The translations under genes and the position numbers were made by a program. From Lachnospiraceae bacterium (lineage in GTDB: Bacteria; Bacillota; Clostridia; Lachnospirales; Lachnospiraceae), in assembly GCA_017520425.1 (NCBI GenBank), contig JAFXFO010000017.1, positions 81,157 to 145,156 of the forward strand: DNA of 64,000 bases, written 5' to 3'. Shown piece by piece: positions 7,161 to 42,302 of this stretch; the stretch's first letter is position 1, and every line of letters starts with the position of its first letter. The notes under the pieces are model-generated. The model was given only the letters and a program-made list of their open reading frames with translations. It was not told the DNA's origin and searched no databases.

Positions 7161-7450
7161 TGGTACCCGGACAACAACGGCACAAATAGGAGATGAATTG
7201 CTGATTTGTACCTGATTATGGATTTATTACAGGCAGTTGGGAACATAATTTCCTACAAGCAGGTCTTGCAAAACGTCAGCCCTTAGCGAGGTTTTAAGAC
7301 GAAGCTTGCTTCGTCACGAGCTTAGTGCTGCTATGTTTTGCACGAAGCGAGAGCGCCCTGCGGTAGGATGTTATGTTTCTGACTGCCCTTAAGATTGGTA
7401 CCCGGACAAATCAGCAATTCAAAGCCAAGACATTCTCTTGTTGTCCGGGC
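7161..7450 (+). repeat. family A long quasi-palindrome, copy A1
   Basis: The whole csoR-copA gap folds on itself. Outer arms: CCCGGACAACAA (7166-7177) with 7438-7449, GAATTGCTGATTTGT (7195-7209) with 7406-7420, and a 25-base arm (7232-7256) with 7363-7387, 20 of 25 matching. The inner core is shared with copies at 32.8 and 42.2 kb: GCAAAACGTCAGC, then CTTAGCGAGGT, then hairpin GACGAAGC-TT-GCTTCGTC (7299-7316), then CACGAGCTTAGTG. The arms are unique to this site and only the core is shared. It sits inside what should be one copper operon, and the copA ribosome site lies just outside its base. No coding frame is supported here. Confidence 0.85.
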
Positions 7451-7466
7451 GAAGAAAGGATAGTGT

Positions 7467-10040
7467 ATGGAACAATATACAGTGACCGGCATGAGCTGTG
7501 CGGCCTGCAGTGCCAGGGTGGAAAAGGCTGTGAAGCAGGTGCCCGGTGTAATGGTTTGTAGCGTGAATTTGCTGACCGGCGATATGGGTGTGGAAGGAAC
7601 GGCTACACCGGAGGAAATCGTAGCTGCTGTGGAAAAGGCGGGGTATGGTGCCTCAGTAAAAAAGCAAAAGAAAAGTGGAGCAGGTGTGTCCGATGAGAGA
7701 ACCGGAGCGAGTCAGGAAGACCTTTTGGCAGATAGGGAAACACCGAAACTGAAAAAAAGATTGATAGCCTCCCTTGGCTTTCTGGTAGTACTTATGTATG
7801 TGTCCATGGGACATGTGATGTGGGGCTGGCCGATGCCCGGATTTTTCGAAGACAATCCGGTGGCAATCGCCTTGGTGCAGTTACTGCTGACCATAGCAGT
7901 GATGGTAATCAATCAGAAGTTTTTTGTTAGCGGCTTCAAAGGCTTACTTCACAGAGCACCGAATATGGATACATTGGTGGCGTTAGGGTCGGGGGCGTCC
8001 TTTGTGTACAGTGCGGTGGTGCTATTTCTGATGACAGGAGCCCGGGCAAGGGGTGACCTGCAAGGAGCAGAGCACTATTTGCATGAGCTGTATTTTGAGT
8101 CGGCCGCCATGATTTTGACATTGATTACCGTGGGGAAGATGCTGGAGGCCCGCTCCAAAGGCAAAACCACGGATGCATTAAAGGGGCTGATGAAGCTGGC
8201 ACCGAAGACAGCTACCCTGCTTGTGGACGGTCAGGAGCAGGAGGTGCCCATAGAGCAGGTGAAAAAGGGTGATGTGTTTGTAGTGCGCCCCGGTGAAAAT
8301 ATCCCCGTAGATGGAAAAGTACTGGAAGGTAGCAGTGCCGTAAATGAGTCTTCCCTGACCGGAGAAAGCATTCCGGTGGATAAGGGAGTCGGTGACAGGG
8401 TTTCCGCAGGTACCATAAATCAGTCGGGGTATCTGCGTTGCGAAGCCATTCGGGTGGGTGAGGATACTACTTTGGCCCGGATTATACAAATGGTCAGCGA
8501 CGGGGCAGCTACCAAGGCACCTATTGCCAAGGTGGCAGACAAGGTATCCGGTATCTTCGTGCCGGCGGTACTGTTGATTGCTTTGGTCACGTTGGGAGGA
8601 TGGTTGATAGCCGGAGAATCCATGGGATTCGCCCTGGCCCGAAGCATCTCCGTGCTGGTCATCAGTTGTCCCTGTGCCCTGGGACTGGCCACCCCGGTGG
8701 CTATTATGGTAGGAAGCGGCGTAGGTGCCCGTCACGGCATCCTGTTTAAGACAGCGGCTTCTTTGGAGGAGACCGGAAAGGCGAAAATCGTGGTGCTGGA
8801 CAAAACCGGTACCATTACGGCAGGAGTTCCTCGGGTTACCGATATATTACCTGCAGAGAGAGTTGCCGGAGAAGAATTGCTTCGGTTGGCGGCTCTTTTG
8901 GAGGAAAAGAGTGAACATCCCTTGGCAAAGGCCATTATGGAGGAAGCCAAGAAGCAATTGAGGTCGGACATCGAGCAAGCAGAGGTGACGGATTTTCAAG
9001 CCTTGCCGGGCAACGGATTGACCGGCTTATACACAGGAAAAGTGCTTTGCGGTGGTAATGCGTCCTTTATAGAAAGCCGGATGCCCATACCGAAACACTT
9101 ATCCGAACAAGCAAAAGACTTGGCACAGACAGGCAAGACGCCCTTATACTTTGCGTATGACGGAAGACTTCTGGGGATTATTGCAGTAGCAGATACCCTG
9201 AAGGAAGACAGCACTCAGGCGGTGCAGGAGTTGAAGGATATGGGCCTGCAGGTGGTGATGCTGACCGGAGACAATGAACAGACAGCAGAGGCCATTGCAA
9301 AAAAGGCCGGTGTGGACAAGGTCATAGCCGGTGTGCTTCCGGAGGGCAAAGAAAGAGCCATTCGTGAGCTGCAGAAACAGGGAAAGGTGATTATGGTAGG
9401 TGACGGAATTAACGATGCACCGGCCTTGGTGGCGGCAGATATGGGTATGGCTATCGGTGCCGGCACGGATGTGGCTGTGGATGCGGCGGAGGTGGTGCTG
9501 ATGAAGAATAGCCTGCGGGACGTGGCAGCAGCCATCCGTTTAAGTCGCAGCACCTTACGAAACATTCATCAGAACCTGTTTTGGGCATTCTTTTACAATA
9601 GTATCGGAATCCCCTTGGCAGCAGGAGTATTCATCCCCATCCTGGGGTGGCAGCTAAATCCCATGTTTGGGGCAGCGGCCATGAGCTTATCCAGCTTTTG
9701 TGTGGTGAGTAACGCTTTGAGGTTAAACCTATGCAAAATATATGGACCGAAGATGCAAACGGAAAGTACGGAAGAAACCATTTTGTCGGAAACGGTTTCG
9801 AATCAACAAATAGAAAGTGAGGAAAAAACAATGAAGAAAACCATGAAAATCGAAGGTATGATGTGTGGTCACTGTGAGGCCAGAGTGAAAAAGGTGCTGG
9901 AGGCACTGGAGCAGGTGGAGATGGCAGAGGTGAGCTATCAGGAGGGAACTGCAATAGTAACGCTGAAAACACCTATTGCCGATGAGGATTTAAAGAAGAT
10001 TATAGAGGATCAGGATTATAAAGTTTTAGAGATTTTTTAA
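7467..10040 (+). CDS. copA: copper-exporting P-type ATPase with N- and C-terminal HMA domains
   Basis: An 857-residue P1B-type ATPase that pumps Cu(I) out of the cell. The N-terminal metal-binding domain has [11 protein letters not shown] (residues 8-18). The membrane part carries the CPC motif in [11 protein letters not shown]. The phosphorylated Asp is in [12 protein letters not shown], and the ATP-binding HP motif is SEHPLAKAI. The hinge is [16 protein letters not shown]. After the last membrane helices there is a linker and a second HMA domain of 69 residues ([11 protein letters not shown]), which resembles a fused CopZ chaperone. The ribosome site GAAAGGA is 7-8 bases from the ATG. It follows csoR and should be derepressed by copper. 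The fused C-terminal domain may also be made separately (see the entry at 9831). Confidence 0.95.
9831..10040 (+). CDS. possible internal start giving a free CopZ-like copper chaperone
   Basis: Inside copA and in the same frame, GTGAGGAAAAAACA precedes an ATG at 9831, with GAGG at 9819-9822 and 8 bases of spacing. Translation from here would give a 69-residue HMA protein, [19 protein letters not shown]..., with the CxxC copper site and the size of CopZ. No separate copZ is visible in the window. A free chaperone made by internal initiation is therefore plausible but unproven. The alternative is that the domain exists only as the C-terminal part of CopA. Confidence 0.35.
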
Positions 10041-10066
10041 TATTTCTGGCGGTTGTCAGATTTTTT

Positions 10067-10106
10067 GGGGATTCGCAGTCGATTTGCTAGACGGAATCCT
10101 CTTTTT
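10067..10106 (+). terminator. terminator after copA
   Basis: GGGGATTC (10067-10074) pairs with GAATCCTC (10094-10101, one G-U) and is followed by TTTTT. The loop is long (19 bases), with a weak inner pairing. Confidence 0.7.
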
Positions 10107-10127
10107 ATGGTATAATTTGAATAATAA

Positions 10128-10286
10128 TTTGTAACTATTCAGAGCCATGCAAATTTTCATAAATGGGGGCATCATGCTTGCATGGATGAACGCATTTTGG
10201 AAAATTTATATGGCGAGATAACCTCATGAGCAAAAGGAAAGCCTCGTAGAGGCGATTTTGCGAATAGAGGTCTGAATAGTTACAAA
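10128..10286 (+). repeat. family B long quasi-palindrome, copy B1
   Basis: Sixteen-base perfect terminal arms, TTTGTAACTATTCAGA (10128-10143), match their complement at 10271-10286. Inside, CCATGCAA (10145-10152) pairs with TTGCATGG (10178-10185), and ATTTATATGGCGAGA follows at 10204. A 21-base block starting TATTCAGAGCC and the AATTTATATGGCGAGA block recur in inverse orientation in the copy at 52.4 kb. The first bases of the arms (TTTGTAAC) are unique to this site. It lies between the copA terminator and the permease gene. Confidence 0.8.
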
Positions 10287-10306
10287 AATTTAAAGGAAGT
10301 TTAACC

Positions 10307-11458
10307 ATGCAAAAGCTTATTGATTTTGTAAAAAAAGAAGTGGTTCTGGTGGTGGCTGTGGTACTGGCTGTAGTGTCCATGTTTTTCGTCACCCCGGATG
10401 CCGCATACATAGATTATATTGATTTTCGTACCCTTAGTATCCTGTTTTGTCTCATGGCTGTCATGGCAGGATTACAGCAGATGGGAGTATTTCGGGAGAT
10501 TGCGGAGGCTCTGTTAAATAAGGTGCAAAAGATTTGGCAGCTGGTACTGATTTTGGTGATGCTGTGTTTCTTTTTCAGTATGCTGATTACCAACGATGTG
10601 GCGCTGATTACCTTTGTGCCTTTTACCTTTATCATCCTGGAGCTTTTGGGCGAGGATGTTTCTAAGAAACTGATGATTCCGGTGGTGGTGATGCAGACCA
10701 TTGCAGCCAATCTGGGCAGTATGTTTACTCCTATTGGCAATCCACAGAATATCTATCTTCATGGTATTTCCGGCATGAATATCGGCAGCTTTCTGCTATT
10801 GATGCTGCCTTATACATTGGTTTCCTTTATCCTGTTGGCAGTGTATTGTATGTATCTTGGAAAGAAGTGTGAAAAGGGAGATACCGGTGCCTCTCTCCAG
10901 TCCTTCCGGAATATGACTACACGTACTCACTTGCAGGGAGGCAGTAGGGATATTATAAGGTATTTGCTGTTATTTGTTTTAAGTCTCATGACAGTAGCAG
11001 GACGGATTCCCTATCTGGTTACTTTAGGGATTGTGTTAGTGGTACTGGTTCTGTTTGACAGGAAGCTTTTTGCCAAGATTGATTATGCCTTGCTTGTGAC
11101 CTTCGTGGGATTTTTCGTGTTTATCGGCAATATGGGAAGAGTGACTGTATTCCGTGACTTTTTGCAGGGGATGATGGAAGGTAATGAAGTAATGACGGCA
11201 GTGGTGTCCAGTCAGGTCATCAGTAATGTGCCGGCGGCACTGCTTTTGTCCGGCTTTACAGATAATATCGAAGCATTGATTGTAGGAACCAATCTGGGGG
11301 GATTGGGTACGTTGATAGCCTCTATGGCCAGTCTGATTTCCTATAAATATGTGGTGAAAGAGAATAAATGCAGCAAGGGTGCTTATTTTGGCTTCTTTAC
11401 CGTAGCCAATGTGGTATTTCTGGTTATCTTGTTGCTAATATATAAAATGGAGGTATAG
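10307..11458 (+). CDS. ArsB/NhaD/CitT-type ion transporter family membrane protein
   Basis: A 383-residue polytopic membrane protein with about 10 hydrophobic segments, resembling the ion transporter (ArsB/SLC13-like) superfamily. Visible features are the opening FRTLSILFCLMAVMAGLQ, the hairpin-loop motif SMLITNDVALITFVPF and the family-typical NLGSMFTPIGNPQNIYLHG. A second repeat ends with QVISNVPAALLLSGFTDN and LGGLGTLIASMASLISYK. The two Asn-containing reentrant motifs support a secondary transporter for an anion such as a dicarboxylate, arsenite or sulfate; the substrate cannot be fixed. It is about 20% shorter than many relatives. The ribosome site AAAGGAAG precedes the ATG. The next gene begins 3 bases after its stop, so the two are co-transcribed. 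Confidence 0.8.
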   Translation: MQKLIDFVKKEVVLVVAVVLAVVSMFFVTPDAAYIDYIDFRTLSILFCLMAVMAGLQQMGVFREIAEALLNKVQKIWQLVLILVMLCFFFSMLITNDVALITFVPFTFIILELLGEDVSKKLMIPVVVMQTIAANLGSMFTPIGNPQNIYLHGISGMNIGSFLLLMLPYTLVSFILLAVYCMYLGKKCEKGDTGASLQSFRNMTTRTHLQGGSRDIIRYLLLFVLSLMTVAGRIPYLVTLGIVLVVLVLFDRKLFAKIDYALLVTFVGFFVFIGNMGRVTVFRDFLQGMMEGNEVMTAVVSSQVISNVPAALLLSGFTDNIEALIVGTNLGGLGTLIASMASLISYKYVVKENKCSKGAYFGFFTVANVVFLVILLLIYKMEV

Positions 11459-11461
11459 CTT

Positions 11462-11857
11462 ATGGAGGTATTGCGTATTTTGATTAAACCTACCGGCTCC
11501 AATCAGGTAAACTCCGGCAAAGGCTTCTTTAATATGGTGCTTTTTGACGGAGAGTGTGATTGCGAGAATTTCAAGGGAAAGGTAATGCCGGGTGGCGTGG
11601 ATACCCAGCATTATTATGCGGAAGGTAAGGGAAGGATTTCCGCACGCTATATGCTGGAAGGCGTGGACAAGGACGGAAAGGCCTGCAAGATTTTTATCCA
11701 GAATGATGGGGAACATGACAATGGATTCTTACCTACCACACCCAAGGTGTACACGGACAGTGAGGCCTTAAGATGGCTGGAGGATGCGGACCTGATAGGT
11801 CACTTGATTTTTGAAGGCGATAAGCTGATTATCAGTATTTGCACAAAAGAAGAATAA
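11462..11857 (+). CDS. DUF3237-like protein
   Basis: A 131-residue soluble protein. Its layout fits DUF3237: a GGVDTQHYYAEGKGRISARYMLEGVDKDG core, an IFIQNDGEH stretch and a C-terminal DLIGHLIFEGDKLIIS strand pair, suggesting a small beta-barrel. The biochemical role of DUF3237 is not known to me. Its ribosome site GGAGGT lies in the end of the upstream permease gene. A polysaccharide deacetylase follows 16 bases downstream, so a role in the same uptake or carbohydrate pathway is possible. Confidence 0.65.
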   Translation: MEVLRILIKPTGSNQVNSGKGFFNMVLFDGECDCENFKGKVMPGGVDTQHYYAEGKGRISARYMLEGVDKDGKACKIFIQNDGEHDNGFLPTTPKVYTDSEALRWLEDADLIGHLIFEGDKLIISICTKEE

Positions 11858-11873
11858 ACAGGAGGAAAAGAGT

Positions 11874-12668
11874 ATGAGATTTGTATATCCACAGGGAAAG
11901 GCAAAGGCCTTAACATTCAGTTATGACGACGCACAGAATTTTGACCGTGAATTGGTACCCATCTTTAATAAGTATGGTATGAAGGCTACCTTCCACTTGA
12001 ATTCCGGTACCTTGGATGGCGGTATTTTCATTCAGAAGGCTGAAGTGGCAGAACTTTACAAAGGCCACGAAATTGCGGCACATGGTGTGCAGCATAAAAA
12101 TCCTACAATGTTAAACAAGCACCAGCTTGTGTTGGAATTCGGCGAAGACCGTAAGGAGCTGGAAAAGCTTACCGGATATATGGTACAGGGTCTGTCCTAT
12201 GCCTTTGGAGCATATTCCGGCGATGTAAAGGAAGCAGCCAAGAGTGTGGGTCTGAAATATGCCAGAACCGTAAACAGTACCAATGGATTCCATACTCCCG
12301 GAGACTTCATGGAATGGAATCCTACCTGTCATCATGATGGAGGTATCATGGACTTGGGTAAGAATTTCTTAAATGTGCCTGATTATATCGAACTTCCTTT
12401 GATGTATGTATGGGGTCACAGTTTCGAGTTTGGTTGGAAAAATGATTATAGCGTGATTGAAGAGTTCTGTGAGATGATGTCCGGCAAAGAGGATATCTGG
12501 TATGCTACCAATCTGGAAATCTGCGATTATCTGACCGCTACCCGTAGTCTGGAGTGGTCTGCGGACGGCAAGACCATGAAGAATCCTACCGCTATCAGTG
12601 TATGGTTTACCGATAACGATGGTAAGCTTTGCGAGTTGAAGCCCGGCGAGATGAAGAACCTGGCATAA
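11874..12668 (+). CDS. polysaccharide deacetylase family protein
   Basis: A 264-residue NodB-type (carbohydrate esterase 4 fold) protein with no signal peptide, so it is predicted to be cytoplasmic. Motif 1 is TFSYDDAQ, with catalytic base Asp18 and metal ligand Asp19. Motif 2 is HGVQH, with metal ligands His70 and His74. YAFGAYSG provides the motif 3 equivalent, and YVWGHSFEFGW is a late conserved block. The family removes N- or O-acetyl groups from sugars using a divalent metal. The absence of export argues for an intracellular sugar or a small-molecule substrate rather than peptidoglycan. It has a CAGGAGG ribosome site and is the third gene of the permease operon. Confidence 0.85.
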   Translation: MRFVYPQGKAKALTFSYDDAQNFDRELVPIFNKYGMKATFHLNSGTLDGGIFIQKAEVAELYKGHEIAAHGVQHKNPTMLNKHQLVLEFGEDRKELEKLTGYMVQGLSYAFGAYSGDVKEAAKSVGLKYARTVNSTNGFHTPGDFMEWNPTCHHDGGIMDLGKNFLNVPDYIELPLMYVWGHSFEFGWKNDYSVIEEFCEMMSGKEDIWYATNLEICDYLTATRSLEWSADGKTMKNPTAISVWFTDNDGKLCELKPGEMKNLA

Positions 12669-12698
12669 TACAAATAAGAAACGAAGGAGAAAAAGGAA

Positions 12699-13379
12699 AT
12701 GGACGTTACACCTAAGAAATGGTCTACCCAGAAAATAGTGGCTATTGCATTGATGGCACTGGCTTTCCTGATGCTGAATGTAAGCTGGATTAAGATTGAC
12801 AGTGATGCATTGGAAGCCGTAGATGAAATGCGAGACGACTTGGAAGAAGAGTTGGAGTGGATTGAAGAAGAATATGATGATTTCGAGGAATATCTGGATG
12901 ATGTCGGCTTTTCCAAAAAAGAGATAAAGACTGCAAAGAAGGCACTGGAGGCCACCGAGGATATGGTTGATACTCTGGGAGAAGGAAAGTATTCTGTATG
13001 GTCAGCAGTTTCCATCATGTCATTCTGCGGAAAAGCAAAAATCTTATTCGAAGAAGAGGATAGTTTCTGGTATGATGAAGAGGCACTCGAAGTAATCGGT
13101 TATCTTCAGCTGATTTTCGGTATTATTATTGGTGTTTTTGCATTGGCGGGACTTTTGATGATATTAGCCATTGTTTCCCATATCGGGGATAAGAGAGGCC
13201 TTGGTATATCGGCTGTTATCTTCTCATTATTGTTACTGCTTGCATTCGGATTCCTGCATTTGGCTCTCAATGTGGACGGTTCCATGGGCGGTATTACCCT
13301 TGCTCCTGTTTTAACATCTGTATTTGCCATAGCTTCTTGTGTGGCTTGGGCAGGTGCAAGAAAACAGATTGCAAAGTAA
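12699..13379 (+). CDS. four-TM membrane protein with acidic loop, unknown function
   Basis: A 226-residue membrane protein I do not recognise. One N-terminal helix (IVAIALMALAFLMLNVSWI) is followed by a very acidic, helical outer segment of about 90 residues (DDLEEELEWIEEEYDDFEEYLDD) that may form a coiled coil. Three more hydrophobic segments and a short basic tail follow. The topology suggests a single large extracytoplasmic domain. It has an AAGGAG ribosome site 30 bases after the deacetylase stop and ends at a strong bidirectional terminator, so it closes the permease operon. Confidence 0.75.
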   Translation: MDVTPKKWSTQKIVAIALMALAFLMLNVSWIKIDSDALEAVDEMRDDLEEELEWIEEEYDDFEEYLDDVGFSKKEIKTAKKALEATEDMVDTLGEGKYSVWSAVSIMSFCGKAKILFEEEDSFWYDEEALEVIGYLQLIFGIIIGVFALAGLLMILAIVSHIGDKRGLGISAVIFSLLLLLAFGFLHLALNVDGSMGGITLAPVLTSVFAIASCVAWAGARKQIAK

Positions 13380-13396
13380 GATTAAAATATATAATA

Positions 13397-13436
13397 AAAA
13401 GCCACAAATTGAGTATTTCAGCTTGTGGCTTTTCTG
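13397..13436. terminator. bidirectional terminator
   Basis: AAAAGCCACAA (13397-13407) pairs with TTGTGGCTTTT (13423-13433). It has A-tract and T-tract on the two sides and lies between convergent genes, so it can serve both. Confidence 0.85.
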
Positions 13437-13458
13437 TTTAAATGTGGTAAAGAAACAG

Positions 13459-14664: not shown

Positions 14665-14666
14665 GT

Positions 14667-16184: not shown

Positions 16185-16206
16185 ACCTTCCTCCTTTTAG
16201 CAGATA

Positions 16207-21046: not shown

Positions 21047-21108
21047 ATTAAATATGAGGCGATTTTCATACAATCGTCGTAATCTGTTGCATTTTACAAC
21101 TAAGTAAG

Positions 21109-21266
21109 GCTTTGAGGTGTTACCTATTATGTAATGCACTGTATAAAAGCACAGATTTTCATACTTTGTATGTCATAGGCGGACATACCTGTCCGACAAA
21201 TGACATACAAAGCAGGGAAAGATGTGTTTTATCCAGTGTGTGAATAATAGGTAACATTTCGAAGCC
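21109..21266 (+). repeat. single long hairpin (element C) upstream of hydroxyacid dehydrogenase
   Basis: About 158 bases fold into one long stem. The pairs are TGTTACCTATTAT (21118-21130) with 21244-21256, CACTG (21137-21141) with CAGTG (21234-21238), CTTTGTATGTCAT (21164-21176) with 21200-21212, and CGGACA (21180-21185) with TGTCCG (21190-21195). The basal GGCTT (21109) pairs with AAGCC (21262-21266). There is no T-tract, so it is not a simple terminator. Its sequence is not shared with families A or B. It ends 31 bases before the next start codon. Confidence 0.75.
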
Positions 21267-21296
21267 GTAAATAGGCATTGAAGGAGGAGAAACAGG

Positions 21297-32769: not shown

Positions 32770-33043
32770 TTACGAAAGTGGGAGAGCAGGGGTCGGATAA
32801 TGTTCCAACGCAAGGCTCTTGCAAAACGTCAGCCCTTAGCGAGGTATTAGGCGAAACTTGTTTCGCCACGAGCTTAGTGCTGCTACGTTTTGGATGAAGC
32901 GAAGAAGAGAACGTCCGGCGACGTTCTCTAAAAGAATTGCTTCGCAATTCTTTTGGCACACACTACTATGCTCGCACAACCTTAATAACACAAGAAGGGT
33001 CTAAGTGGAATATTATCCGACCCCTGCTCTCCCACTTTCGTAA
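32770..33043 (+). repeat. family A long quasi-palindrome, copy A2
   Basis: Outer arms are 32 bases and perfect: 32770-32801 with 33012-33043, beginning TTACGAAAGTGGGAGAGC. They extend about seven more pairs with one mismatch. The family A core follows: GCAAAACGTCAGC (32821-32833), CTTAGCGAGGT, hairpin GGCGAAAC-TT-GTTTCGCC (32850-32867) and CACGAGCTTAGTGCTGCTACGT. Relative to A1 this hairpin has A-T changed to G-C and G-C changed to A-T, so pairing is preserved. Two more perfect hairpins follow, AGAGAACGTC-CGGC-GACGTTCTCT and AAAAGAATTGC-TTC-GCAATTCTTTT (32906-32955). It lies between luxS and the LRR gene. Confidence 0.9.
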
Positions 33044-34684: not shown

Positions 34685-34713
34685 TTGAAATTTTCAGACA
34701 AAAAAGGTATAAT
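34685..34713 (+). promoter_or_regulatory. promoter of yegP-like gene
   Basis: TTGAAA (34685-34690), 17 bases, perfect TATAAT (34708-34713). The ATG follows at 34766 behind AGGAGGG. Confidence 0.8.
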
Positions 34714-34765
34714 TATCATAACTTAATTTCGATAAAGTAATATATTACATAGGAGGGTTTACGAA

Positions 34766-35137
34766 ATGGGTAAGTTTGTTGTAAAAGAGACAAAGACCGG
34801 TATTAAGTTTGATTTAAAGGCAGGCAATGGCGAAGTGATTGCTACTTCTGAAGTATATTCTTCTAAGAGCGGTTGCATGAACGGTATCGAATCTGTTAAG
34901 AAGAATTCTGTAGCAGCAGCTATCGAAGATCAGACTGTAGAAGGATTTGCTACTGAGAAGAATCCTAAGTTTGAAGTTTATACTGACAAGGCTGGCGAAT
35001 TCAGATTCCGCTTAAAGGCTTCCAATGGTCAGATTATCGCTACCGGCGAAGGCTACAAGTCAAAGTCAGGCTGCATGAACGGTATTGAATCCGTAAAGAA
35101 GAACGCACCTGATGCAGAGGTTGTTGAAGCAGAATAA
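34766..35137 (+). CDS. YegP-family (DUF1508) duplicated-domain protein
   Basis: A 123-residue protein made of two DUF1508 repeats, each ending in the nearly identical SKSGCMNGIESVKKN. The first is KFDLKAGNGEVIATSE and the second RFRLKASNGQIIATGE. YegP-like proteins are small stable dimers of unknown function, often abundant. The strong promoter, AGGAGG site, codon bias (AAG, GAA, GGT) and clean terminator suggest high expression. Each repeat is about 60 residues, and the inter-repeat linker (TEKNPKFEVYTDKAG) is short. It is a monocistronic gene. Confidence 0.93.
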   Translation: MGKFVVKETKTGIKFDLKAGNGEVIATSEVYSSKSGCMNGIESVKKNSVAAAIEDQTVEGFATEKNPKFEVYTDKAGEFRFRLKASNGQIIATGEGYKSKSGCMNGIESVKKNAPDAEVVEAE

Positions 35138-35151
35138 TAAGTGATTATGAA

Positions 35152-35183
35152 GGCTCCTTGCATAAGGCAGGGAGCCTTTTTTT
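35152..35183 (+). terminator. terminator after yegP-like gene
   Basis: GGCTCCTTGC (35152-35161) pairs with GCAGGGAGCC (35167-35176, one G-U) and is followed by seven T. Confidence 0.92.
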
Positions 35184-35195
35184 GAGGAATGTAAC

Positions 35196-36050
35196 ATGCT
35201 TTACTTATCAAGTTTTCAGTTTCCGGATATTGAGGAAGAATATGATTTTATGTTTCGTATGAAGCGGACCTGCTATGATACGGTCTACCCATTTCAGATT
35301 CTCTCCAAGCATGGACTTAGGAGGTTGGACTTCGAACCGGTGACTATTTTGTACGGCGGCAATGGTTCCGGCAAGACCACGGCACTGAATGTTATAGCAG
35401 AAAAGTTGGGACTACAAAGGGACAGCTTGTACAATCGCAGCAACTTTTTTGAAGATTACACCCGTATGTGCCGGGTTGATACAGAGAATAAAATACCTCG
35501 GGAAAGTGCGATTATCACCAGTGATGATGTGTTTGACTTTATGTTAAATCTGCGTAGTATGAACGAGGGCATCAATCAAAAGCGGGAGGAGCTTTTTGAG
35601 GAGTATCAGGAGCTGAAGCATAAGAGCTTCCGGATGAATTCCCTGGAGGATTATGACCAATTAAAACGGGTCATCAGTGCCCGCAGCAAGACCCAGTCTA
35701 AGTTCGTACGTGCGAACCTGGCAGACAATGTGCGGGAGCATTCCAACGGAGAAAGTGCCTTTTTGTATTTCGGAGAGAAGATAAAGGAGAATGCCCTATA
35801 TCTGTTGGACGAGCCGGAAAACAGTCTGTCACCGGCAAAACAACAGGAGTTACTTAAATTTCTGGAGGATTCGGCCCGGTTTTTCGGATGTCAGTTTGTG
35901 ATAGCAACCCACTCGCCTTTCTTACTATCCATGCGTGGTGCCAAGATTTATGATTTGGATGAGGAGCCGGTGGATGTGAAGCGATGGACGGAACTGAAAA
36001 ATGTGAGGGAATATTATGAATTTTTCATGAGCCATGAGAGCGAGTTTTAG
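35196..36050 (+). CDS. AAA-family ATPase (SMC/RecF-like fold)
   Basis: A 284-residue ATPase. Walker A is YGGNGSGKTTALN (about residues 53-65). The ABC-type signature is REHSNGESAF. Walker B is YLLDEPENSLSP, and the switch His is FVIATHSPFLLS. This is the AAA_21/AAA_23 type found in DNA-repair-like and toxin-antitoxin-like proteins. No coiled-coil arm and no nuclease partner are seen, so it is a stand-alone ATPase. GAGGA precedes the start. The esterase ribosome site lies about 95 bases after its stop. The function is unknown. Confidence 0.85.
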   Translation: MLYLSSFQFPDIEEEYDFMFRMKRTCYDTVYPFQILSKHGLRRLDFEPVTILYGGNGSGKTTALNVIAEKLGLQRDSLYNRSNFFEDYTRMCRVDTENKIPRESAIITSDDVFDFMLNLRSMNEGINQKREELFEEYQELKHKSFRMNSLEDYDQLKRVISARSKTQSKFVRANLADNVREHSNGESAFLYFGEKIKENALYLLDEPENSLSPAKQQELLKFLEDSARFFGCQFVIATHSPFLLSMRGAKIYDLDEEPVDVKRWTELKNVREYYEFFMSHESEF

Positions 36051-36159
36051 TAGACTTATTAGGAGATTTGGTAGTAAAATAGATAGGAAAGCAGTTGGCC
36101 GTAAAGGGGTGACGGCAAAGTCATTAATCAGAAATAAGAAAGATATGAGGAGGAACAAC

Positions 36160-36960
36160 ATGTCAACAAATTATGAAGCACCAAAGGGATATGATGAAGT
36201 ACAGGATGGGGTAAGATACAGTGAAATACAGGTGATTGAATACCCTTCCAAAACCACAGGAACTGTACGTAAGGCAAATTTACTTTTGCCCTTAGACTAT
36301 ACACCGGAAAAGAAGTACCCGGTTCTTTATCTGCTCCACGGTATCGGAGGCGATCACAATGAGTGGTTGGGCGGCGATCCTGCTACCGTAATGAGCAATC
36401 TGTGGGCCAAGGGAGAAGCTAAGGACATGATTGTGGTAATCCCCAATGTTCGTGCCAGAGCCAATGATGAGGGCAATCCGGCGGATATCTTTACCCCCAA
36501 TCATTTTAAGGCATTTGACAACTTTATTAACGACTTAACAAACGATTTGAAACCGTACATAGAAGCAAATTATTCTGTAGCAGAGGGCAGAGAAAATACC
36601 GCTATCGCAGGACTTTCCATGGGTGGACGTACCTCTCTGTATATCGGCTTCACTTTGCCTGAGACCTATGGTTATATCGGAGCTTTCTGTCCTGCTCCCG
36701 GAGTTTTAAGCTACAGCAATATTATGAATGCGGAGGACGGACTCTTTACCCGTGAAAACTTCACCCTTCCCAAGGAGCTGAAGACCTTGGTAATGATTGT
36801 GGAGGGAGCTACCGATGAAGTTGTAAAGATTTGGCCTTCAACCTACCATCAGGCATTGGTGGACAATGATGTGGACCATATCTATTATGTAACCGAAGGC
36901 GGCCACGATTTCACGGTTTGGAAGCATGGCTTGTACAATTTTGCAAAGAGGATATTCTAG
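36160..36960 (+). CDS. alpha/beta-hydrolase esterase (esterase D / CE1-like)
   Basis: A 266-residue hydrolase resembling acetyl-xylan or feruloyl esterases of the putative esterase family. The oxyanion region is YLLHGIGGDHNEWLGGD. The nucleophile elbow is AGLSMGGRTSLY, the acid region is VEGATDEVVK, and the His is in EGGHDFTVWKHGL. There is no signal peptide, so it is cytoplasmic. It may act on acylated oligosaccharides taken into the cell or detoxify esters. The start at 36160 has AGGAGG upstream. The longer frame from 36034 overlaps the ATPase gene and has no family match. Confidence 0.88.
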   Translation: MSTNYEAPKGYDEVQDGVRYSEIQVIEYPSKTTGTVRKANLLLPLDYTPEKKYPVLYLLHGIGGDHNEWLGGDPATVMSNLWAKGEAKDMIVVIPNVRARANDEGNPADIFTPNHFKAFDNFINDLTNDLKPYIEANYSVAEGRENTAIAGLSMGGRTSLYIGFTLPETYGYIGAFCPAPGVLSYSNIMNAEDGLFTRENFTLPKELKTLVMIVEGATDEVVKIWPSTYHQALVDNDVDHIYYVTEGGHDFTVWKHGLYNFAKRIF

Positions 36961-37000
36961 TGACTTAAGGGATGCAAAGGAGCATGGAGGTGTATAGGGG

Positions 37001-37882
37001 ATGTTACAAAAGAAGGAAAAAGGGGAAATAACAGAAGCAAAAGCAAAGGTTTTGGCAAAGATATTACTGGCGGTATTTTTCATGGTACTTTCCATTTTTG
37101 TGTTGGCATATGAGGTGCCGCGAACCAAGTATGTGCAATCTACGGTGGAAAGTCTGGAAACCAGCAGGACCAAGATTATGGAGTTTTCCGGTGCAACCAT
37201 TGCTACTTCTCTGGCGATTACGGCACTACCGGATGATTTTGGTACACCTTTGGCTGATACACTGGCGGATATGAATATGTATTTTATATTTATCTTTGCG
37301 GTTCTCTTCGTGGAGAAGCTATTGGTAGTGGAAGGGGTGAAATTCTCCTTTGCGTGGATAATACCCATTGCCTTGGGGCTTTACATATTGGGCACATTGA
37401 TTACCAAGGATTCCATAAAATTGTTCGCGAAAAAGCTTTTAATCTTCGGAATGGCGGTAGTTTTTGTGATTCCGGTGAGTACCCATTTTACGGAAAAAGT
37501 GTGTGCGGATTATCTGGTTTATGTGGATGATACTATTGCGGAAGCCAATGACGGAGCTCAAAAGGTCAATGAAATCATGGCTACTGAAGAGGAGGAAACC
37601 ACCATTTTTGATAAATTATCCGCCGCTTTCAAGACTGCCATGAGCGGTATGAATGACTTGATGGAATATTTTGAAAATGTAATAAAGAAATTTATCAATT
37701 CCATCGCCATTATGCTGGTAACAAGCTTTGTAATGCCGTTATTTATATTAATCATTTTCCGATGGTTAATTAAAGAGTTGTTCTCGTTGAATTTATCCCT
37801 TCCTCAGGTGAAGATTTTGCTTCCGGGGAAAAACAAAGGAGAGAAAGCAGCTTCTGACCTGCCGCAAAAGGAGGAAGCGTAA
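37001..37882 (+). CDS. polytopic membrane protein, unknown function
   Basis: A 293-residue membrane protein. It has an N-terminal helix, an outer loop of about 50 residues (PRTKYVQSTVESLETSRTKI), three clustered helices (residues about 90-160), a second outer region rich in acidic and Thr residues, and a final helix (IAIMLVTSFVMPLFILIIF) followed by a basic cytoplasmic tail. The general plan recalls chemoreceptor-like or transport accessory proteins, but no family is recognised. It overlaps the next gene by one base (TAATG), so the two products are probably partners. Confidence 0.7.
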   Translation: MLQKKEKGEITEAKAKVLAKILLAVFFMVLSIFVLAYEVPRTKYVQSTVESLETSRTKIMEFSGATIATSLAITALPDDFGTPLADTLADMNMYFIFIFAVLFVEKLLVVEGVKFSFAWIIPIALGLYILGTLITKDSIKLFAKKLLIFGMAVVFVIPVSTHFTEKVCADYLVYVDDTIAEANDGAQKVNEIMATEEEETTIFDKLSAAFKTAMSGMNDLMEYFENVIKKFINSIAIMLVTSFVMPLFILIIFRWLIKELFSLNLSLPQVKILLPGKNKGEKAASDLPQKEEA

Positions 37883-38571
37883 TGAAGAAGAAAATATTGA
37901 TTGGTGCTTCCGCACTTTTGTTACTGGCCAGTCTGGTGATCCTGATTTGGGGGATTTGTAATCGTCGTACTTTGTTTCAGGAGCCCTATGATGACGGAGT
38001 GACGCAGGTTGATTTGAATACCATTTATCTGGGAGACAGTGGAGTAGAGGTAAATTTTGCAGAGGTCCTGTTGGGGAAGCAGAACGAGACCAGAAAGCTG
38101 ATTGTCAGTACCCAGGAAGCCTCCATATCCATAGAGCTTACGGATAGCCTGATTAATAAGCTGGACTTTGATTTCCTGAAGAAGACCCAAAAGATCAGCT
38201 ATACGGGAAAAGGTTATTTTGTGGTGGATTTGGACAACCTGAATGCAGGTAGCATCGTACAGGATAATGAAAAGAAGATCGTCACTATTCGAATCAGACA
38301 TGCCTATTTGCAGGCATTGGAGATTGACCCCAACCAAATCGTAGTGGGGGATGTGAGAGAAACCTTGCTGGCAAGAGGAGATATCAAGATATCCATGGCT
38401 GACTATAAGGAAATCGAAAAGGAAATAGTCAAGCGTATGAGAGCGAAATTCGATACCTCCGAGCAGGGGCAGATAGCAGATGCTACTGCACTGCAGATGG
38501 TGAAGGAGATTTATGAGCCTGTGATTAAGGCCATTGATAATGATTTTAGTGTGGTTGTGGAGTTTAGGTAG
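37882..38571 (+). CDS. single-pass membrane protein, DUF4230-like
   Basis: A 229-residue protein. An N-terminal membrane helix (LIGASALLLLASLVILIWGI) is followed by an extracytoplasmic domain of about 200 residues. The pattern fits DUF4230: a beta-rich part ending KKIVTIRIRHAYLQALEIDPNQIVVGD, then helices IEKEIVKRMRAKFD. The resemblance is moderate. It is translationally coupled to the upstream polytopic protein. A role as an envelope-facing partner is inferred from the coupling alone. A receiver protein and a sensor kinase follow on the same strand and may respond to the same stimulus. Confidence 0.6.
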   Translation: MKKKILIGASALLLLASLVILIWGICNRRTLFQEPYDDGVTQVDLNTIYLGDSGVEVNFAEVLLGKQNETRKLIVSTQEASISIELTDSLINKLDFDFLKKTQKISYTGKGYFVVDLDNLNAGSIVQDNEKKIVTIRIRHAYLQALEIDPNQIVVGDVRETLLARGDIKISMADYKEIEKEIVKRMRAKFDTSEQGQIADATALQMVKEIYEPVIKAIDNDFSVVVEFR

Positions 38572-38594
38572 CATAGGTGTATGGGAGGTTAATC

Positions 38595-39398
38595 ATGAAG
38601 TACAAATTATTACTAGCAGGAAAAAATCAGGTGATTATTGATGATTTCTTTTATGTTATGAATGAAGAGTTTGAATGTGTTACTACGTCCATTCGAGGAA
38701 ATGATGTGGTCAATCATATCAGGTATTTTCAGCCGGATGCTTTTGTGTATTGTATTACACAGGAAAACCGGGAAAGTATAACGAAGCTGATTACGGCATT
38801 GGAAAGTGTGGAGCGAAAGAAACTGAATTTGATACTGATTGGGGATAGTGCTTCCTGCGGTGAGTTCATACAGATAAAGCCTGAATTGGTTAGTCTTACC
38901 CTGTTGAAGCCTATAACAGCCGGCACAATTAAGCAACAGATTACCAAGTTTTTAAGTGAGAAAAAAGCAGAGGAAGAAGCACAGGAGTTGTTGAAAAAGG
39001 CAGAGGCAGAAAAACTGCAGGCTAATGAGCCGGAACCTTTGAAGCATGTATTAGTCATTGATGACGACCCCATTATGCTTAGACTGATTAAGGAAGAATT
39101 GAAGGAGCATTATAACGTAGCCACGGCTATCAGCGGTAAGATTGCACTGAATTTCCTGCAGAAAAAGAAAACCGATCTGATTTTACTGGATTACGAAATG
39201 CCGGAAGAAAACGGTCCTGCCGTTTTGGAAAAAATACGTAAATCAGAAGAATTAAGAAATATACCGGTAGTCTTTTTAACCGGAATCAATGATAGAGAAA
39301 AAATCAAGCAGGTTTTATCATTGAAGCCCCAGGGATATTTATTGAAACCGATTGAACATGATAAGCTGATTCAGACCATACAGCAGGTTATCGGATAA
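38595..39398 (+). CDS. response regulator with pseudo-receiver plus receiver domain
   Basis: A 267-residue protein without DNA-binding domain. Residues 2-120 form a receiver-like fold (LLLAGKNQVIIDDFFYVM) that lacks the phosphorylated Asp. A Lys/Glu-rich helix links it to a standard receiver (residues about 150-267): HVLVIDDDPIMLRLI, then LILLDYEMPEENG with acceptor Asp199, and PVVFLTGINDREKI with the switch Thr and LLKPIEHDK Lys. The start at 38595 has GGGAGG. It stands 15 bases before the hybrid kinase and is its likely partner. It may transmit the signal by protein contact, since it has no output domain. Confidence 0.85.
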   Translation: MKYKLLLAGKNQVIIDDFFYVMNEEFECVTTSIRGNDVVNHIRYFQPDAFVYCITQENRESITKLITALESVERKKLNLILIGDSASCGEFIQIKPELVSLTLLKPITAGTIKQQITKFLSEKKAEEEAQELLKKAEAEKLQANEPEPLKHVLVIDDDPIMLRLIKEELKEHYNVATAISGKIALNFLQKKKTDLILLDYEMPEENGPAVLEKIRKSEELRNIPVVFLTGINDREKIKQVLSLKPQGYLLKPIEHDKLIQTIQQVIG

Positions 39399-39413
39399 GC
39401 GGAGGGAATACAT

Positions 39414-42101
39414 ATGGCAGAGGAAGATTTAAGATTAACAGACCTGATAAGTGTTGATACATTACAGCTGATTCAAGATACCTTTTGTGATATGTGTAAC
39501 ATTGCTATAGGAATCACGGATGAGAATGGTGTAATGGTTACGGAAGGAGCCATGGCATCGGACTTCTGTCAGAATTATAATAAAAAATCACCCATTGGCA
39601 GGAAACGTTGTGAGCAATGTGACAAGTATGGTGGGGAATTGGCCTTGGAAAAGGGAATGTCGGTAACCTATCACTGTCATGCAGGATTGGTGGATTTTGC
39701 CGCGCCTATTATGGCACATGGCAAGAAAATAGGACATATTAATGGTGGGCAGGTTCGCACAGAAGAGCTGGATGAAAGGAAATTACGTCAAATAGCGAAA
39801 GAGATTGAGGTGGATCCTGATGGTTATGTGGAAGCTGCCAAGAAGATTCGTTATATAGAGAGGGATGAATTAGAGAAAGTTACAGGCTTTTTATATCAAA
39901 TGTCCGGAATTATTTCAGAGATGGCATACGATCGGTATTCTCTGATTCAGGCCTATGAAGAGGTAGAGCGGGCGGCACAGATGAAGTCGGACTTTCTGGC
40001 TAATATGAGTCATGAAATCAGAACGCCCATGAATGCAGTAATCGGTATGGCTGAGATGGCTCTCAGAGAGGATTTGCCTTCTGCTGCAAGAGGGTATGTG
40101 AGTCAGATTATTTCTTCCGGAAAGACGCTGTTAACCATTATCAATGATATTCTGGATTTTTCAAAAATAGATGCCGGTAGAATGGATATTGAGGAAGAAG
40201 AATACGAGCCCATGTCTTTGGTAAATGACGTGGCGAATATTGTAAATACCCGAATTGGTGAAAAGGATGTAGAACTGATTCTGGATATTGCACCGAATTT
40301 ACCGCGCAAGCTACTGGGAGATATTAACCGATTAAAGCAGGTCATTATAAATCTGGCAAATAATGCTGTGAAGTTTACACGAAAAGGTCAGGTGGTGCTG
40401 AAGGTAGGATTTCGGAAGATATTGAAGGACGAAATCCGACTGGAAATCTCCGTACAGGATACGGGAATCGGTATCAAAGAGGAAGATATGCAAAGGCTGT
40501 TTGAAGCATTTCAGCAGTTAGACAGCAAGCGCAATCGTAATATCGAAGGCACCGGTTTGGGACTGGCTATATCTCATAGAATCGTTTCTCTTATGGGTGG
40601 CGAAATCTGGGTAGAAAGTGAGTATGAAAAGGGTAGTACCTTTTCGTTCTGGATTCCCCAAAAGATTTTTGATGAGAAGCCTTCTATCGTGGTAAAAGAG
40701 AAGGAGAACATATCGGCAGCAGGACTGGTTGCTAACGGATTTTTAAGAACTCATATAGAGAAAGATATGGGTTATCTGGGAATTCCTTATTTTTCATTGG
40801 AGTCAGAGGAGGATTTGGAGATTATTGCAGAGAAAAACATACCATACTTCTTTGTGGGACAGGGTATGTTTTCACCTAAGGTAGAAGAGTTTGTAAAGAA
40901 GCATCCGGAAATCAAAACCATTTTGATGATTGATTTTAGAAATACGGTTAAGCTGAATATCAGCAATCTGATGATTGTAAAGAAGCCGGTGTATGTATTA
41001 AATATCGCTTCCATACTGAATGGTGAAGATGTGAATACCGGATTCGGGTGTTCCGGTAACGATAATTTTGACTTTATAGCGCCGGAAGCAGAAGTATTGA
41101 TTGTAGATGATAATGCCATCAATCTGACGGTAGCAGAAGGCTTGCTGGAACCCTTGCGCATGAAGATATCTACGGCCACCAGCGGAAAAGAAGCAGTAGA
41201 AATGATTTCAGAGAAGATGTATGATTTGATTTTCATGGATCATATGATGCCGGAAATCGATGGTGTGGAAACCACTCATATCATTCGACGGTTCCATAGA
41301 GAGTATGATGATGTACCTATCATAGCTTTAACAGCCAATGCCGTAAGCGGTACCAAGGAAATGTTTATCCGAGAGGGTATGAATGATTTTGTGGCAAAGC
41401 CGATTGAAATGCGAACCATACTTTCCAAGCTGAAGACTTGGTTGCCTAAGCATAAGATTAAGAAGGTTTATGAAGAAGCAAATGAAGAAACCGGTCAGCA
41501 GGAAATAAAAGCGGTTTTAATCGATGGTTTAGATACGGAAGCAGCCATGAGACTTCTTGGAACGGAGAAGCTGTTTTGGGCTGTATTAAAGGACTATTAT
41601 CAGGTGATTGAAAAGAAAGCAAAGCTGATTAAGCAGCTGGAGGAGGCTGAGGATTGGCACGGCTATACCATCGAAGTACATGCCCTGAAAAGTGCCTCCA
41701 AGCAGATAGGTGCTATGGAGTTGTCTGAAAAAGCCGCTCGTTTGGAGAAGGCAGGAAACGAAGAGGACGGAGAGCTGATTCATCAAAGTACCGATGAAAT
41801 GCTTAATCTGTATCTGAGTTATCTGGAAATCCTGAGGCCTTATTTCCCGGAGGAAAATAAGGAGGTAGAGCCCAGTAAAATCATGTCACATCCGGAGCTT
41901 ATGGGATACTTTGACAATATCCGTACCGCTATTGAAGAATTGGATTTTGATGCCATGGAGTATGTACTGGAGGTTATGTCAGAGTATAAATATGAGGGAC
42001 AGCACGCAGAGTATTTTGTACAGCTGAAAGAAGCTGTGGCCGAATATGATGTGGATAAATGTGAAGAAGTGATGCAGATGTGGGAAAAAGCGAGTTGCTG
42101 A
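39414..42101 (+). CDS. PocR-domain hybrid histidine kinase with receiver and Hpt domains
   Basis: An 895-residue cytoplasmic hybrid kinase. An N-terminal PocR ligand-binding domain (10-175) contains Cys-rich elements (RKRCEQCDKYGG, YHCHAGLVDFAAPI). The HisKA domain has NMSHEIRTPMN with His200, followed by the HATPase_c boxes (NLANNAVKF, DTGIGIKEED, GTGLGLAIS). A degenerate receiver-like region follows (about 430-550). A true receiver has EVLIVDDNAINL, FMDHMMPEIDG (Asp609) and FVAKPIE. An Hpt domain has VHALKSASKQIG (His756), and the C-terminal ~100 residues are helical. No membrane segment is visible, so it senses a soluble ligand, perhaps a small metabolite as in PocR. A phosphorelay His200-Asp609-His756 can be drawn. 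The receiver gene upstream is its neighbour. Confidence 0.9.
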   Translation: MAEEDLRLTDLISVDTLQLIQDTFCDMCNIAIGITDENGVMVTEGAMASDFCQNYNKKSPIGRKRCEQCDKYGGELALEKGMSVTYHCHAGLVDFAAPIMAHGKKIGHINGGQVRTEELDERKLRQIAKEIEVDPDGYVEAAKKIRYIERDELEKVTGFLYQMSGIISEMAYDRYSLIQAYEEVERAAQMKSDFLANMSHEIRTPMNAVIGMAEMALREDLPSAARGYVSQIISSGKTLLTIINDILDFSKIDAGRMDIEEEEYEPMSLVNDVANIVNTRIGEKDVELILDIAPNLPRKLLGDINRLKQVIINLANNAVKFTRKGQVVLKVGFRKILKDEIRLEISVQDTGIGIKEEDMQRLFEAFQQLDSKRNRNIEGTGLGLAISHRIVSLMGGEIWVESEYEKGSTFSFWIPQKIFDEKPSIVVKEKENISAAGLVANGFLRTHIEKDMGYLGIPYFSLESEEDLEIIAEKNIPYFFVGQGMFSPKVEEFVKKHPEIKTILMIDFRNTVKLNISNLMIVKKPVYVLNIASILNGEDVNTGFGCSGNDNFDFIAPEAEVLIVDDNAINLTVAEGLLEPLRMKISTATSGKEAVEMISEKMYDLIFMDHMMPEIDGVETTHIIRRFHREYDDVPIIALTANAVSGTKEMFIREGMNDFVAKPIEMRTILSKLKTWLPKHKIKKVYEEANEETGQQEIKAVLIDGLDTEAAMRLLGTEKLFWAVLKDYYQVIEKKAKLIKQLEEAEDWHGYTIEVHALKSASKQIGAMELSEKAARLEKAGNEEDGELIHQSTDEMLNLYLSYLEILRPYFPEENKEVEPSKIMSHPELMGYFDNIRTAIEELDFDAMEYVLEVMSEYKYEGQHAEYFVQLKEAVAEYDVDKCEEVMQMWEKASC

Positions 42102-42123
42102 TAGTTCGCTGAAAACAATACAA

Positions 42124-42302
42124 AGAAACCGGCATGGCTCGGTCATATATATCCTATTTGGACACGCTCTCGCTTGGATGAATTACGTAGCGGACACTAA
42201 GCTCGTGACGAAGCAAGCTTCGTCTTACTACCTCGCTAAGTGCCGACGAATTCATACAGTCCTGCATTAGGATATATATCGGCCCGGACCATGCCGGTTT
42301 CT
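42124..42302 (-). repeat. family A long quasi-palindrome, copy A3
   Basis: This copy is inverted relative to A1 and A2. Outer arms: AGAAACCGGCATGG (42124-42137) with 42289-42302, and ATATATATCCTA (42145-42156) with 42268-42279. The core on the minus strand reads CACTTAGCGAGGTAGTAAGACGAAGC-TT-GCTTCGTCACGAGC, with the hairpin at 42207-42224. It lies between the 3' ends of convergent genes (kinase and large membrane protein). The arms do not resemble those of A1 or A2. Confidence 0.88.

What the first reader, a model, noticed from the sequence alone, without database searches (positions are those of the whole stretch)
7161..42302. Three family A long palindromes share a core but have locus-specific self-complementary arms
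Copies at 7161-7450, 32770-33043 and 42124-42302 share the core (CTTAGCGAGGT, the GACGAAGC-type hairpin, CACGAGCTTAGTG). Their outer arms (12-32 bases) differ completely at each site, yet each arm matches its own partner perfectly or nearly so. Ordinary transposed repeats would share their ends. Two explanations fit. Each may be an element that duplicated the flanking DNA in inverted orientation when it moved. Or it may be a structure held by intra-hairpin correction (template switching) while the sequence drifted. I know of no named element with this pattern.
Basis: partly seen in the sequence, partly recalled or inferred. Interest (0 to 1): 0.8.

Follow-up and report, generated by a model that had tools for sequence, protein, structure and literature searches.

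The report
Mobile hairpin repeats of Lachnospiraceae
The three long palindromes belong to a large, apparently unnamed family of hairpin-shaped repeats in gut bacteria that behave like small mobile DNAs, and whose two arms stay complementary while their letters drift, which makes them a good test case for how matching changes arise on the two sides of a hairpin.

Summary
The three palindromes share a conserved folded tip and have self-complementary arms. They belong to a high-copy family: 35 copies in this genome, 26 in a relative, at least 143 in each of two others. Hits come from Lachnospiraceae genomes; none in the phage, plasmid or viral collections searched.

One clean empty site shows a hairpin inserted whole, with both arms, between 9-nt direct repeats. 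In that subfamily 4 of 32 copies keep 8-11 nt direct repeats, 0.06 expected. There the arms belong to the element. Arms are often shared within a subfamily but vary between copies in mirrored fashion.

Stems at the same locus in two species diverge about as much as intergenic DNA (5.4% and 6.5%), with G·T and A·C mismatches equally common. This fits mobile DNA whose arms are re-matched at the DNA level, plus exchange between copies, better than RNA selection.

Open: the mobilising enzyme (no Y1 transposase in five copy-rich relatives), and the terminator-like arms of copy 3's subfamily. Best label: a new MITE-like family.

The parts
7166..7449 (+). Copy 1: whole hairpin, subfamily A1 (284 nt between outermost perfect arms)
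   Evidence: the repeat finder I2; fold extent; exact arm positions
7166..7177 (+). Copy 1 outermost left arm; partner 7438-7449
7194..7209 (+). Copy 1 left arm (subfamily-type arm GAATTGCTGATTTGT); partner 7406-7421
   Evidence: relatives by eye
7244..7256 (+). Copy 1 left box CATAATTTCCTAC; partner GTAGGATGTTATG 7363-7375
7274..7335 (+). Copy 1 conserved core (CGTC...CTATG) with variable tip
7344..7355 (+). Copy 1 side hairpin GAAGCGAGAGCG
32770..33043 (+). Copy 2: whole hairpin, upstream of a luxS gene on the - strand, with a nested insert of 90 nt
   Evidence: the repeat finder I1; ortholog L193/L051; LuxS by Pfam
32770..32806 (+). Copy 2 left arm; partner 33007-33043
32827..32887 (+). Copy 2 conserved core
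32906..32954 (+). Two small palindromes nested in copy 2, part of the 90-nt insert that the same copy in G065 lacks
42117..42309 (-). Copy 3: whole hairpin, subfamily A2, between convergent genes, terminator-like arms
   Evidence: the repeat finder I3
42145..42156 (-). Copy 3 box ATATATATCCTA; partner 42268-42279
42186..42248 (-). Copy 3 conserved core (reverse strand)
42165..42175 (-). Copy 3 side hairpin (reverse strand)

Best explanation
The palindromes are copies of a non-autonomous, MITE-like mobile DNA family of Lachnospiraceae. Each unit is one long hairpin of roughly 110-300 nt. Its conserved tip and side hairpin are probably what the mobilising enzyme reads in folded DNA (inferred). 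Its long arms are part of the unit and go with it into a new site, leaving 8-11 nt direct repeats (shown for one subfamily of about 204 nt). After insertion a copy changes at about the rate of intergenic DNA (shown). Arms differ between copies because what is kept is their match to each other, not their letters: one-sided mutations are turned into mirrored ones by DNA-level arm-to-arm copying (template switching or hairpin repair), during mobilisation or slowly in place, and blocks are exchanged between copies. Arm-to-arm copying is inferred from mirrored changes; block exchange is suggested at two loci. The copies look selfish; terminator activity at some sites is likely a side effect (inferred).
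For: Copy number and spread: 35 copies in G000 at E below 1e-8, 26 in G065, 149 in G017 and 143 in G066 (150 candidates scored); 32 of 41 genomes of the genus have a match. Insertion as a unit: L337 in G066 is empty at GGCTACAATA^GACAGAGTAT; L374 in G017 carries 220 nt more, with ends AGTCAATTGCGAAACTC/GAGTTTTGCAATTGACT, and neither arm is in the empty site. 4 of 32 units of that subfamily have direct repeats of at least 8 nt, 0.06 expected, with offsets summing to 5 nt in all four. Mirrored arms: 46 mirrored against 30 one-sided deviations in 14 copies; arms paired at random give 0.70 mirrored per copy, observed 3.29. Strict pairing: 95.5% of 3374 cells paired, 641 double-change cells against 149 in shuffles; over 26 of the 29 pairs G.T 35 and A.C 28 of 3022 cells, while 6 tRNAs read by the same script idea give 15 G.T and 0 A.C of 140. 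Same locus in two species: single changes G.T 59, A.C 51, other 41; stem divergence 5.4%, outer arms 6.3%, intergenic 6.5%, coding 5.2%; 58 double Watson-Crick changes, 2.7 expected. Orientation to genes: +E+ 41, -E- 41, convergent 26, divergent 15 of 123 (ORFs called by script).
Against: No mobilising enzyme was found: Y1_Tnp is absent from the five most copy-rich relatives, no autonomous element appeared among 17 end matches in G017, and other enzyme classes were not searched. Of 29 locus pairs compared (19, 10) only one gives a clean empty site; two other gaps (L348/L373, L308/L359) are internal deletions. Direct repeats survive in 4 of 32 units, and the allowed offset was widened after three were seen by eye. 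Near the core (positions 1-45) an alignment-based count gives G.T 158 and A.C 78, and in the 18 own-genome copies at positions 29-110 it gives 60 and 33, which lean towards RNA; farther out (46-110) it gives 166 and 267. Stems diverge less than the 120 nt next to the hairpins (5.4% against 8.0%), so some constraint is possible. Conserved unequal internal loops persist, which whole-arm copying would erase. In close copy pairs at 90% identity or more one-sided changes dominate, 59 to 5. Part of the double changes look like exchange with other copies.
Confidence: 0.57

Rival explanations
1. A structured non-coding RNA or RNA regulator present in many copies, with stems held by selection on RNA pairing.
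For: Conserved tip and unequal internal loops with covarying stems; G.T exceeds A.C within 45 nt of the core (158 to 78) and in the own-genome copies (60 to 33); stems diverge less than the nearest flanks.
Against: In modelled columns G.T 35 against A.C 28 of 3022 cells (the three pairs set aside would add 2 and 20), tRNA control 15 to 0. Single changes at the same locus: G.T 59, A.C 51. Orientation to co-directional genes is even, 41 to 41. No Rfam match at gathering score in the window; in 8 loci searched leniently the only hit over a copy was a miRNA hairpin model far below its gathering score.
Confidence: 0.15
2. For the subfamily of copy 3 (boxes TATATATCCTA), the unit inserts at the centre of pre-existing terminator hairpins, so the arms are ordinary terminators of that locus.
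For: In the relative G065 the site matching L007, between the same two genes, has a 27-bp simple hairpin, and downstream of the left genes of L010 and L012 there are 15-bp and 14-bp hairpins, none with the unit (the last two matched on the left side only). Arms are mostly GC-rich with A or T runs outside (by eye) and differ between copies whose units are similar.
Against: The hairpins in the relative have other sequences. Read by eye, complementarity runs straight into the unit ends in most copies, with no unpaired loop letters left, although a terminator needs a loop. No direct repeat is visible there by eye.
Confidence: 0.25
3. For the same subfamily, insertion duplicates an adjacent terminator in inverted orientation, giving matched arms.
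For: In 7 of 10 such copies the left arm alone folds (P against shuffles 0.02 to 0.19, two of them below 0.05; three do not fold). In six of the seven (L007, L009, L012, L014, L017, L023) the inner loops of the two arms are reverse complements or nearly so, read by eye.
Against: The self-folding signal is modest, and only left arms were folded. The clean empty site of another subfamily shows no such duplication. Copies of other subfamilies share arms.
Confidence: 0.12
4. The matched arms and double changes are produced only by gene conversion among dispersed copies, with no arm-to-arm copying.
For: In L347/L382 and L308/L359 the inner stem and tip changed as a block, and closely similar tips occur in other copies: 32 of 32 letters for the part of L382 that could be read, 69-72 of 76 and 71 of 73 for the two L308/L359 types.
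Against: For an arm of L295/L332 the best other copy fetched matches 24 and 20 of 30 letters (only part of all copies was fetched). 22 double Watson-Crick changes remain in the 42 copies without clusters, 1.4 expected.
Confidence: 0.25

Closest known systems
[quoted passage not shown]
   Same: Short, non-coding, mostly intergenic, inverted ends, inserted as a unit with direct repeats, high copy number
   Different: The centre, not the ends, is conserved across species; end sequences drift as matched pairs; no parent transposase found
REP / BIME / REPIN elements (GTAG- and CGTC-tagged palindromes)
   Same: High-copy intergenic palindromes; close pairs in opposite orientation; CGTC and CTACG flank the core hairpin
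   Different: 110-300 nt rather than 20-40; the CGTC and CTACG letters are paired in the model, not unpaired tags; no associated tyrosine transposase found; a term search of the 2013 survey (PMC3733652) finds no Firmicutes or Clostridia in its main text
Quasi-palindrome correction by template switching (PMC8794818, PMC8604942; abstract, outline or passages seen)
   Same: Homogenised arms and inverted spacers are its reported marks; mirrored changes and one inverted tip (L084) are seen here
   Different: Those papers treat RNA genes and yeast coding DNA; here it would act on a mobile family in bacteria, and exchange between copies contributes
Integron attC sites (recalled, not from a call)
   Same: Folded palindromes with variable sequence and kept unpaired letters
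   Different: Dispersed copies; the tip is conserved and the arms variable, the reverse of attC

Membership tests
MITE | Terminal inverted repeats | tested here: met
   Units with GGTAATTGCGAAACT-type ends in G017/G066, 18 of 21 of them 203-207 nt; outer arms shared in G065
MITE | Target-site direct repeats | tested here: met
   4 of 32 units with at least 8 nt, 0.06 expected; one clean empty site. Shown for this subfamily only
MITE | Ends shared with an autonomous transposon of the genome | tested here: inconclusive
   17 end matches in G017, two pairs about 200 nt apart and none 0.8-3 kb apart; one end pattern and one genome only
MITE | Small size, no gene | tested here: met
   Hairpins of about 110-300 nt
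REP/REPIN | Unit of 20-40 nt | tested here: not met
REP/REPIN | Unpaired GTAG or CGTC tag at one end | tested here: not met
   CGTC pairs with the CTACG side in the covariation model
REP/REPIN | RAYT (Y1 tyrosine transposase) flanked by the repeat | tested here: not met
   The single Y1_Tnp of G000 reads as an IS200 and has no core within the 1.5 kb held on each side; no Y1_Tnp in five copy-rich relatives, which are 73-87% complete
Known structured RNA family (Rfam 15) | Match at or above gathering score over the element | tested here: not met
   Window and 8 loci
Structured RNA | G-U favoured over A-C in stems | tested here: inconclusive
   Near equal; 2 to 1 near the core and in own copies, reversed farther out; tRNA control 15 to 0
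Template-switch arm homogenisation | Mirrored changes above chance at one locus | tested here: met
   58 against 2.7 expected; 22 against 1.4 without the six clustered copies
Template-switch arm homogenisation | Source of the change lies in the other arm, not in another copy | tested here: inconclusive
   Some blocks match other copies, one does not among those fetched
Integron attC | Cassette array and integrase | not tested
   Dispersed copies make it unlikely; no integrase search run

The most novel reading that the evidence does not exclude
A bacterial mobile DNA that is recognised by shape: its arms may take any sequence because each cycle of mobilisation copies one arm from the other, so the family evolves by mirrored changes with strict Watson-Crick pairing and no RNA selection. 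At some sites it may also build its arms out of the local terminator.
Probability: 0.3. Interest if true: 0.75.

Novelty: new variant of a known kind. Interest (0 to 1): 0.5.

Why it matters
Covarying stems are usually read as strong evidence of functional RNA. This family shows very strong covariation, yet at the same locus in two species G-U and A-C mismatches are equally common. With over a hundred copies in some genomes it is a ready test set for whether matching changes on the two sides of a hairpin come from selection, from arm-to-arm copying or from exchange between copies. It is also an interspersed repeat of gut Lachnospiraceae that could be taken for a structured RNA in motif searches, and its mobilising enzyme is an open target.

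Tried and rejected
RAYT mobilisation: the only Y1_Tnp of the genome reads as an IS200 without the core beside it, and five copy-rich relatives have none. Known RNA family: no match. Phage, plasmid or viral origin: no match (by blastn; by exact pattern). Arm score with fixed windows: windows wrongly placed; replaced by folding. First G.T/A.C count: a counter used one key for two classes and double-counted; redone. Instant arm correction in every copy: rejected, one-sided changes come first. L348/L373 and L308/L359 as empty sites: rejected, by eye element ends remain, so these are deletions. First direct-repeat scan (21 units): offset limit 3 found none of 6 nt or more; three repeats at offset 4 were then seen by eye and the limit was widened to 6 (32 units), where mismatched flanks with the same limit are the null. 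Sister-genome search for empty sites of six copies: both flanks together were found for one copy only.

Rows set aside: three of 29 pairs (they hold 265 Watson-Crick, 2 G.T, 20 A.C, 65 other cells); copies with insertions or long tips in choosing model seeds, and 30 of the 44 printed seeds were aligned; 100 loci were given, not every locus held; 17 of 31 copies where both arms did not fit the consensus.
Full report
What is there. The three palindromes are the longest inverted pairs found with arms no more than 600 nt apart in the window. The exact core CGTCRGCNCTTAGCGAGG lies at 7274 (+), 32827 (+) and 42231 (-), with no fourth site at up to 4 substitutions. Copies 1 and 2 are 87% and 97% identical over two core stretches. 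The same core gives 23 matches in the whole genome at E up to 10, about 20 of them real copies by reading. A covariance model built from 30 copies of many species finds 38 matches at E up to 1, 35 of them below 1e-8.

How far it spreads. 75 of the 80 listed titles carry a Lachnospiraceae name (Lachnospiraceae, Acetatifactor, Roseburia, [Clostridium] symbiosum; their family is recalled), and 5 say only Clostridia, Clostridiales or bacterium. No match was found in plasmids or phages by blastn or in viral contigs by exact pattern. In the genus 32 of 41 genomes have at least one match; the richest are G017 (75, at the scoring cap of that call), G012 (65), G005 (53), G027 (46) and G032 (42). With 150 candidates scored, G017 and G066 give 149 and 143. 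G068 is the same genome as G017 and G067 the same as G027, judged by identical coordinates.

Anatomy. From the outside in: long arms, a box stem with an unequal internal loop, an inner stem, the conserved tip, and on the 3' side a small AGCGARAGCG-type hairpin. On 119 copies from 100 loci the 29 modelled pairs are formed in 95.5% of cells; 26 of 29 pairs have changes on both sides; 641 cells are double changes against 149 in shuffles and 43-86 when partners are slid. The alignment was fitted to the structure, so this leans towards it. The innermost tip is variable and often itself a small palindrome. Copies lie between genes in all orientations: +E+ 41, -E- 41, convergent 26, divergent 15 of 123 copies, with ORFs called by script. 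All 17 close pairs (under 1.5 kb) are head-to-head; in the pairs read, the two members mostly have different arms; some pairs are the same locus in related species, so they are not independent.

Are the arms specific to each locus? Only partly. In the relative G065 many copies share the outer arm TCCCAATTTGCTTATTTGTGTC, and copy 1 belongs to that group by eye. In 14 of 31 copies where both arms could be read, 46 deviations from the consensus are mirrored on both arms, 30 are on one arm and 4 differ; one of the 14 (L207) is out of register and adds 10 one-sided counts. Arms paired at random give 0.70 mirrored and 6.49 one-sided per copy, observed 3.29 and 2.14. In G017 and G066 another subfamily has ends of the type GGTAATTGCGAAACT, with 18 of 21 units 203-207 nt long. 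Copies of the box TATATATCCTA group in the window's genome, including copy 3, have arms that I saw in no other copy listed.

How copies arrive. G017, G066 and G027 are close (mostly 92-95% identity over shared loci), so sites can be compared. Of 29 locus pairs (19, 10) one gives a clean difference: empty in G066 (L337), filled in G017 (L374) with 220 nt more, bounded by the inverted ends and by the direct repeat ACAGAGTAT; neither arm exists in the empty site (the G017 stretch has a few masked letters). Over 32 units of that subfamily, 4 (this one included) keep direct repeats of 8 to 11 nt against 0.06 expected from mismatched flanks, with offsets summing to 5 nt in all four. The offset limit was widened after three of these were seen by eye. 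Two further gaps are deletions inside an element. Upstream of luxS (named by Pfam), where copy 2 lies, none of 27 related genomes has the core or the arm; these regions do not align, so this is weak. The relative G065 has copy 2 at the same place, nearly identical apart from a 90-nt nested insert in the window.

What happens after arrival. For 48 copies at the same locus in two species (33 locus pairs; a few loci are counted in two species comparisons), stems have 151 one-sided changes (G.T 59, A.C 51, other 41), 58 double Watson-Crick changes where 2.7 are expected from independence, and 17 other double changes. Stem divergence is 5.4% per site and 6.3% in outer arms; coding 5.2%, intergenic 6.5%, within 120 nt of the hairpins 8.0%. 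So stems change about as fast as intergenic DNA, though less than the nearest flanks. Six copies hold 36 of the 58 double changes. In two examined cases (L347/L382, L308/L359) the inner stem and tip changed as a block to types close to ones in other copies, which points to exchange between copies. Without the six, 22 double changes remain against 1.4 expected, but in the outer arms only 4 against 82 single ones, 0.9 expected. So in-place correction of outer arms is slow, while mirrored differences between copies are plentiful; renewal of the match during mobilisation would explain both. That step is inferred; slow correction in place over longer times is not excluded.

RNA or DNA? Over 26 of the 29 modelled pairs G.T makes 35 and A.C 28 of 3022 cells; the three pairs set aside would add 2 and 20. 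Six tRNAs give 15 G.T and 0 A.C of 140. Single changes at the same locus are also balanced. Against this, an alignment-based count gives G.T 158 to A.C 78 at positions 1-45 from the core and 60 to 33 at positions 29-110 in the 18 own-genome copies, while positions 46-110 of all copies give 166 to 267. Unequal internal loops are conserved. I take DNA-level recognition as more likely and do not claim RNA is excluded.

Copy 3's group. Ten such copies were examined. In seven the left arm alone folds into a small hairpin (P against shuffles 0.02 to 0.19, two below 0.05; the other three do not fold), with A or T runs outside by eye. In G065 the site matching L007 holds a simple 27-bp hairpin between the same two genes; downstream of the left genes of L010 and L012 there are 15-bp and 14-bp hairpins. 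None has the unit and all are of other sequence. So these units sit where terminators sit. Whether they enter terminators or copy them in inverted form is open.

Enzyme. Y1_Tnp is found in 13 of 41 genomes of the genus and in none of the five relatives richest in copies, which are 73-87% complete. A search for the unit ends in G017 gave 17 matches and no pair spaced like a full transposon. No other enzyme class was searched.

Literature seen. PMC3733652: abstract, outline and passages (REP super-families; terms Firmicutes and Clostridi have no occurrence in its main text). PMC8794818: passages. PMC8604942: abstract and outline. PMC8040213: passages; it reports 250 palindromic candidate RNAs in human microbiomes, whose lists were not read, so this family may be among them. 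PMC3116915, PMC8266576 and the MITE papers: search listings with the start of the abstract only. The statement that the family is unnamed rests.

Noticed in passing
32906-32954, within a 90-nt insert in copy 2: Two small palindromes (AGAGAACGTCCGGCGACGTTCTCT, AAAAGAATTGCTTCGCAATTCTTTT) nested in the side-hairpin region; similar inserts by eye in L248 and, in reverse order, L017; absent from the same copy in G065. A second, smaller mobile palindrome?
   Followed up: partly
21100-21274: Another long imperfect hairpin without the core (I4); a similar stretch (GTAATGCACNGTATAAAAG) lies beside copy L231 in the same genome by eye, so possibly a second repeat family.
   Followed up: no
52342-52517: 18-bp perfect inverted arms 140 nt apart with further small palindromes inside and no core.
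   Followed up: no
50645-50689: 20-bp perfect hairpin with a 5-nt loop just past the end of an ORF: simple long hairpins at gene ends occur here too.
   Followed up: no
L084, core match 4123-4155 (- strand): The tip is inverted relative to the side hairpin, which sits on the 5' side: a spacer inversion, a reported mark of template switching.
   Followed up: no
L244, 1501-1652: The conserved internal loop of the tip is replaced by paired TTTGT/ACAAA.
   Followed up: no
L151, 2762-2926: A TwoAYGGAY RNA (115 bits) lies close to a copy (core at 3044).
   Followed up: no
63692-63991: Imperfect tandem repeats with 15-nt steps at the window end.
   Followed up: no
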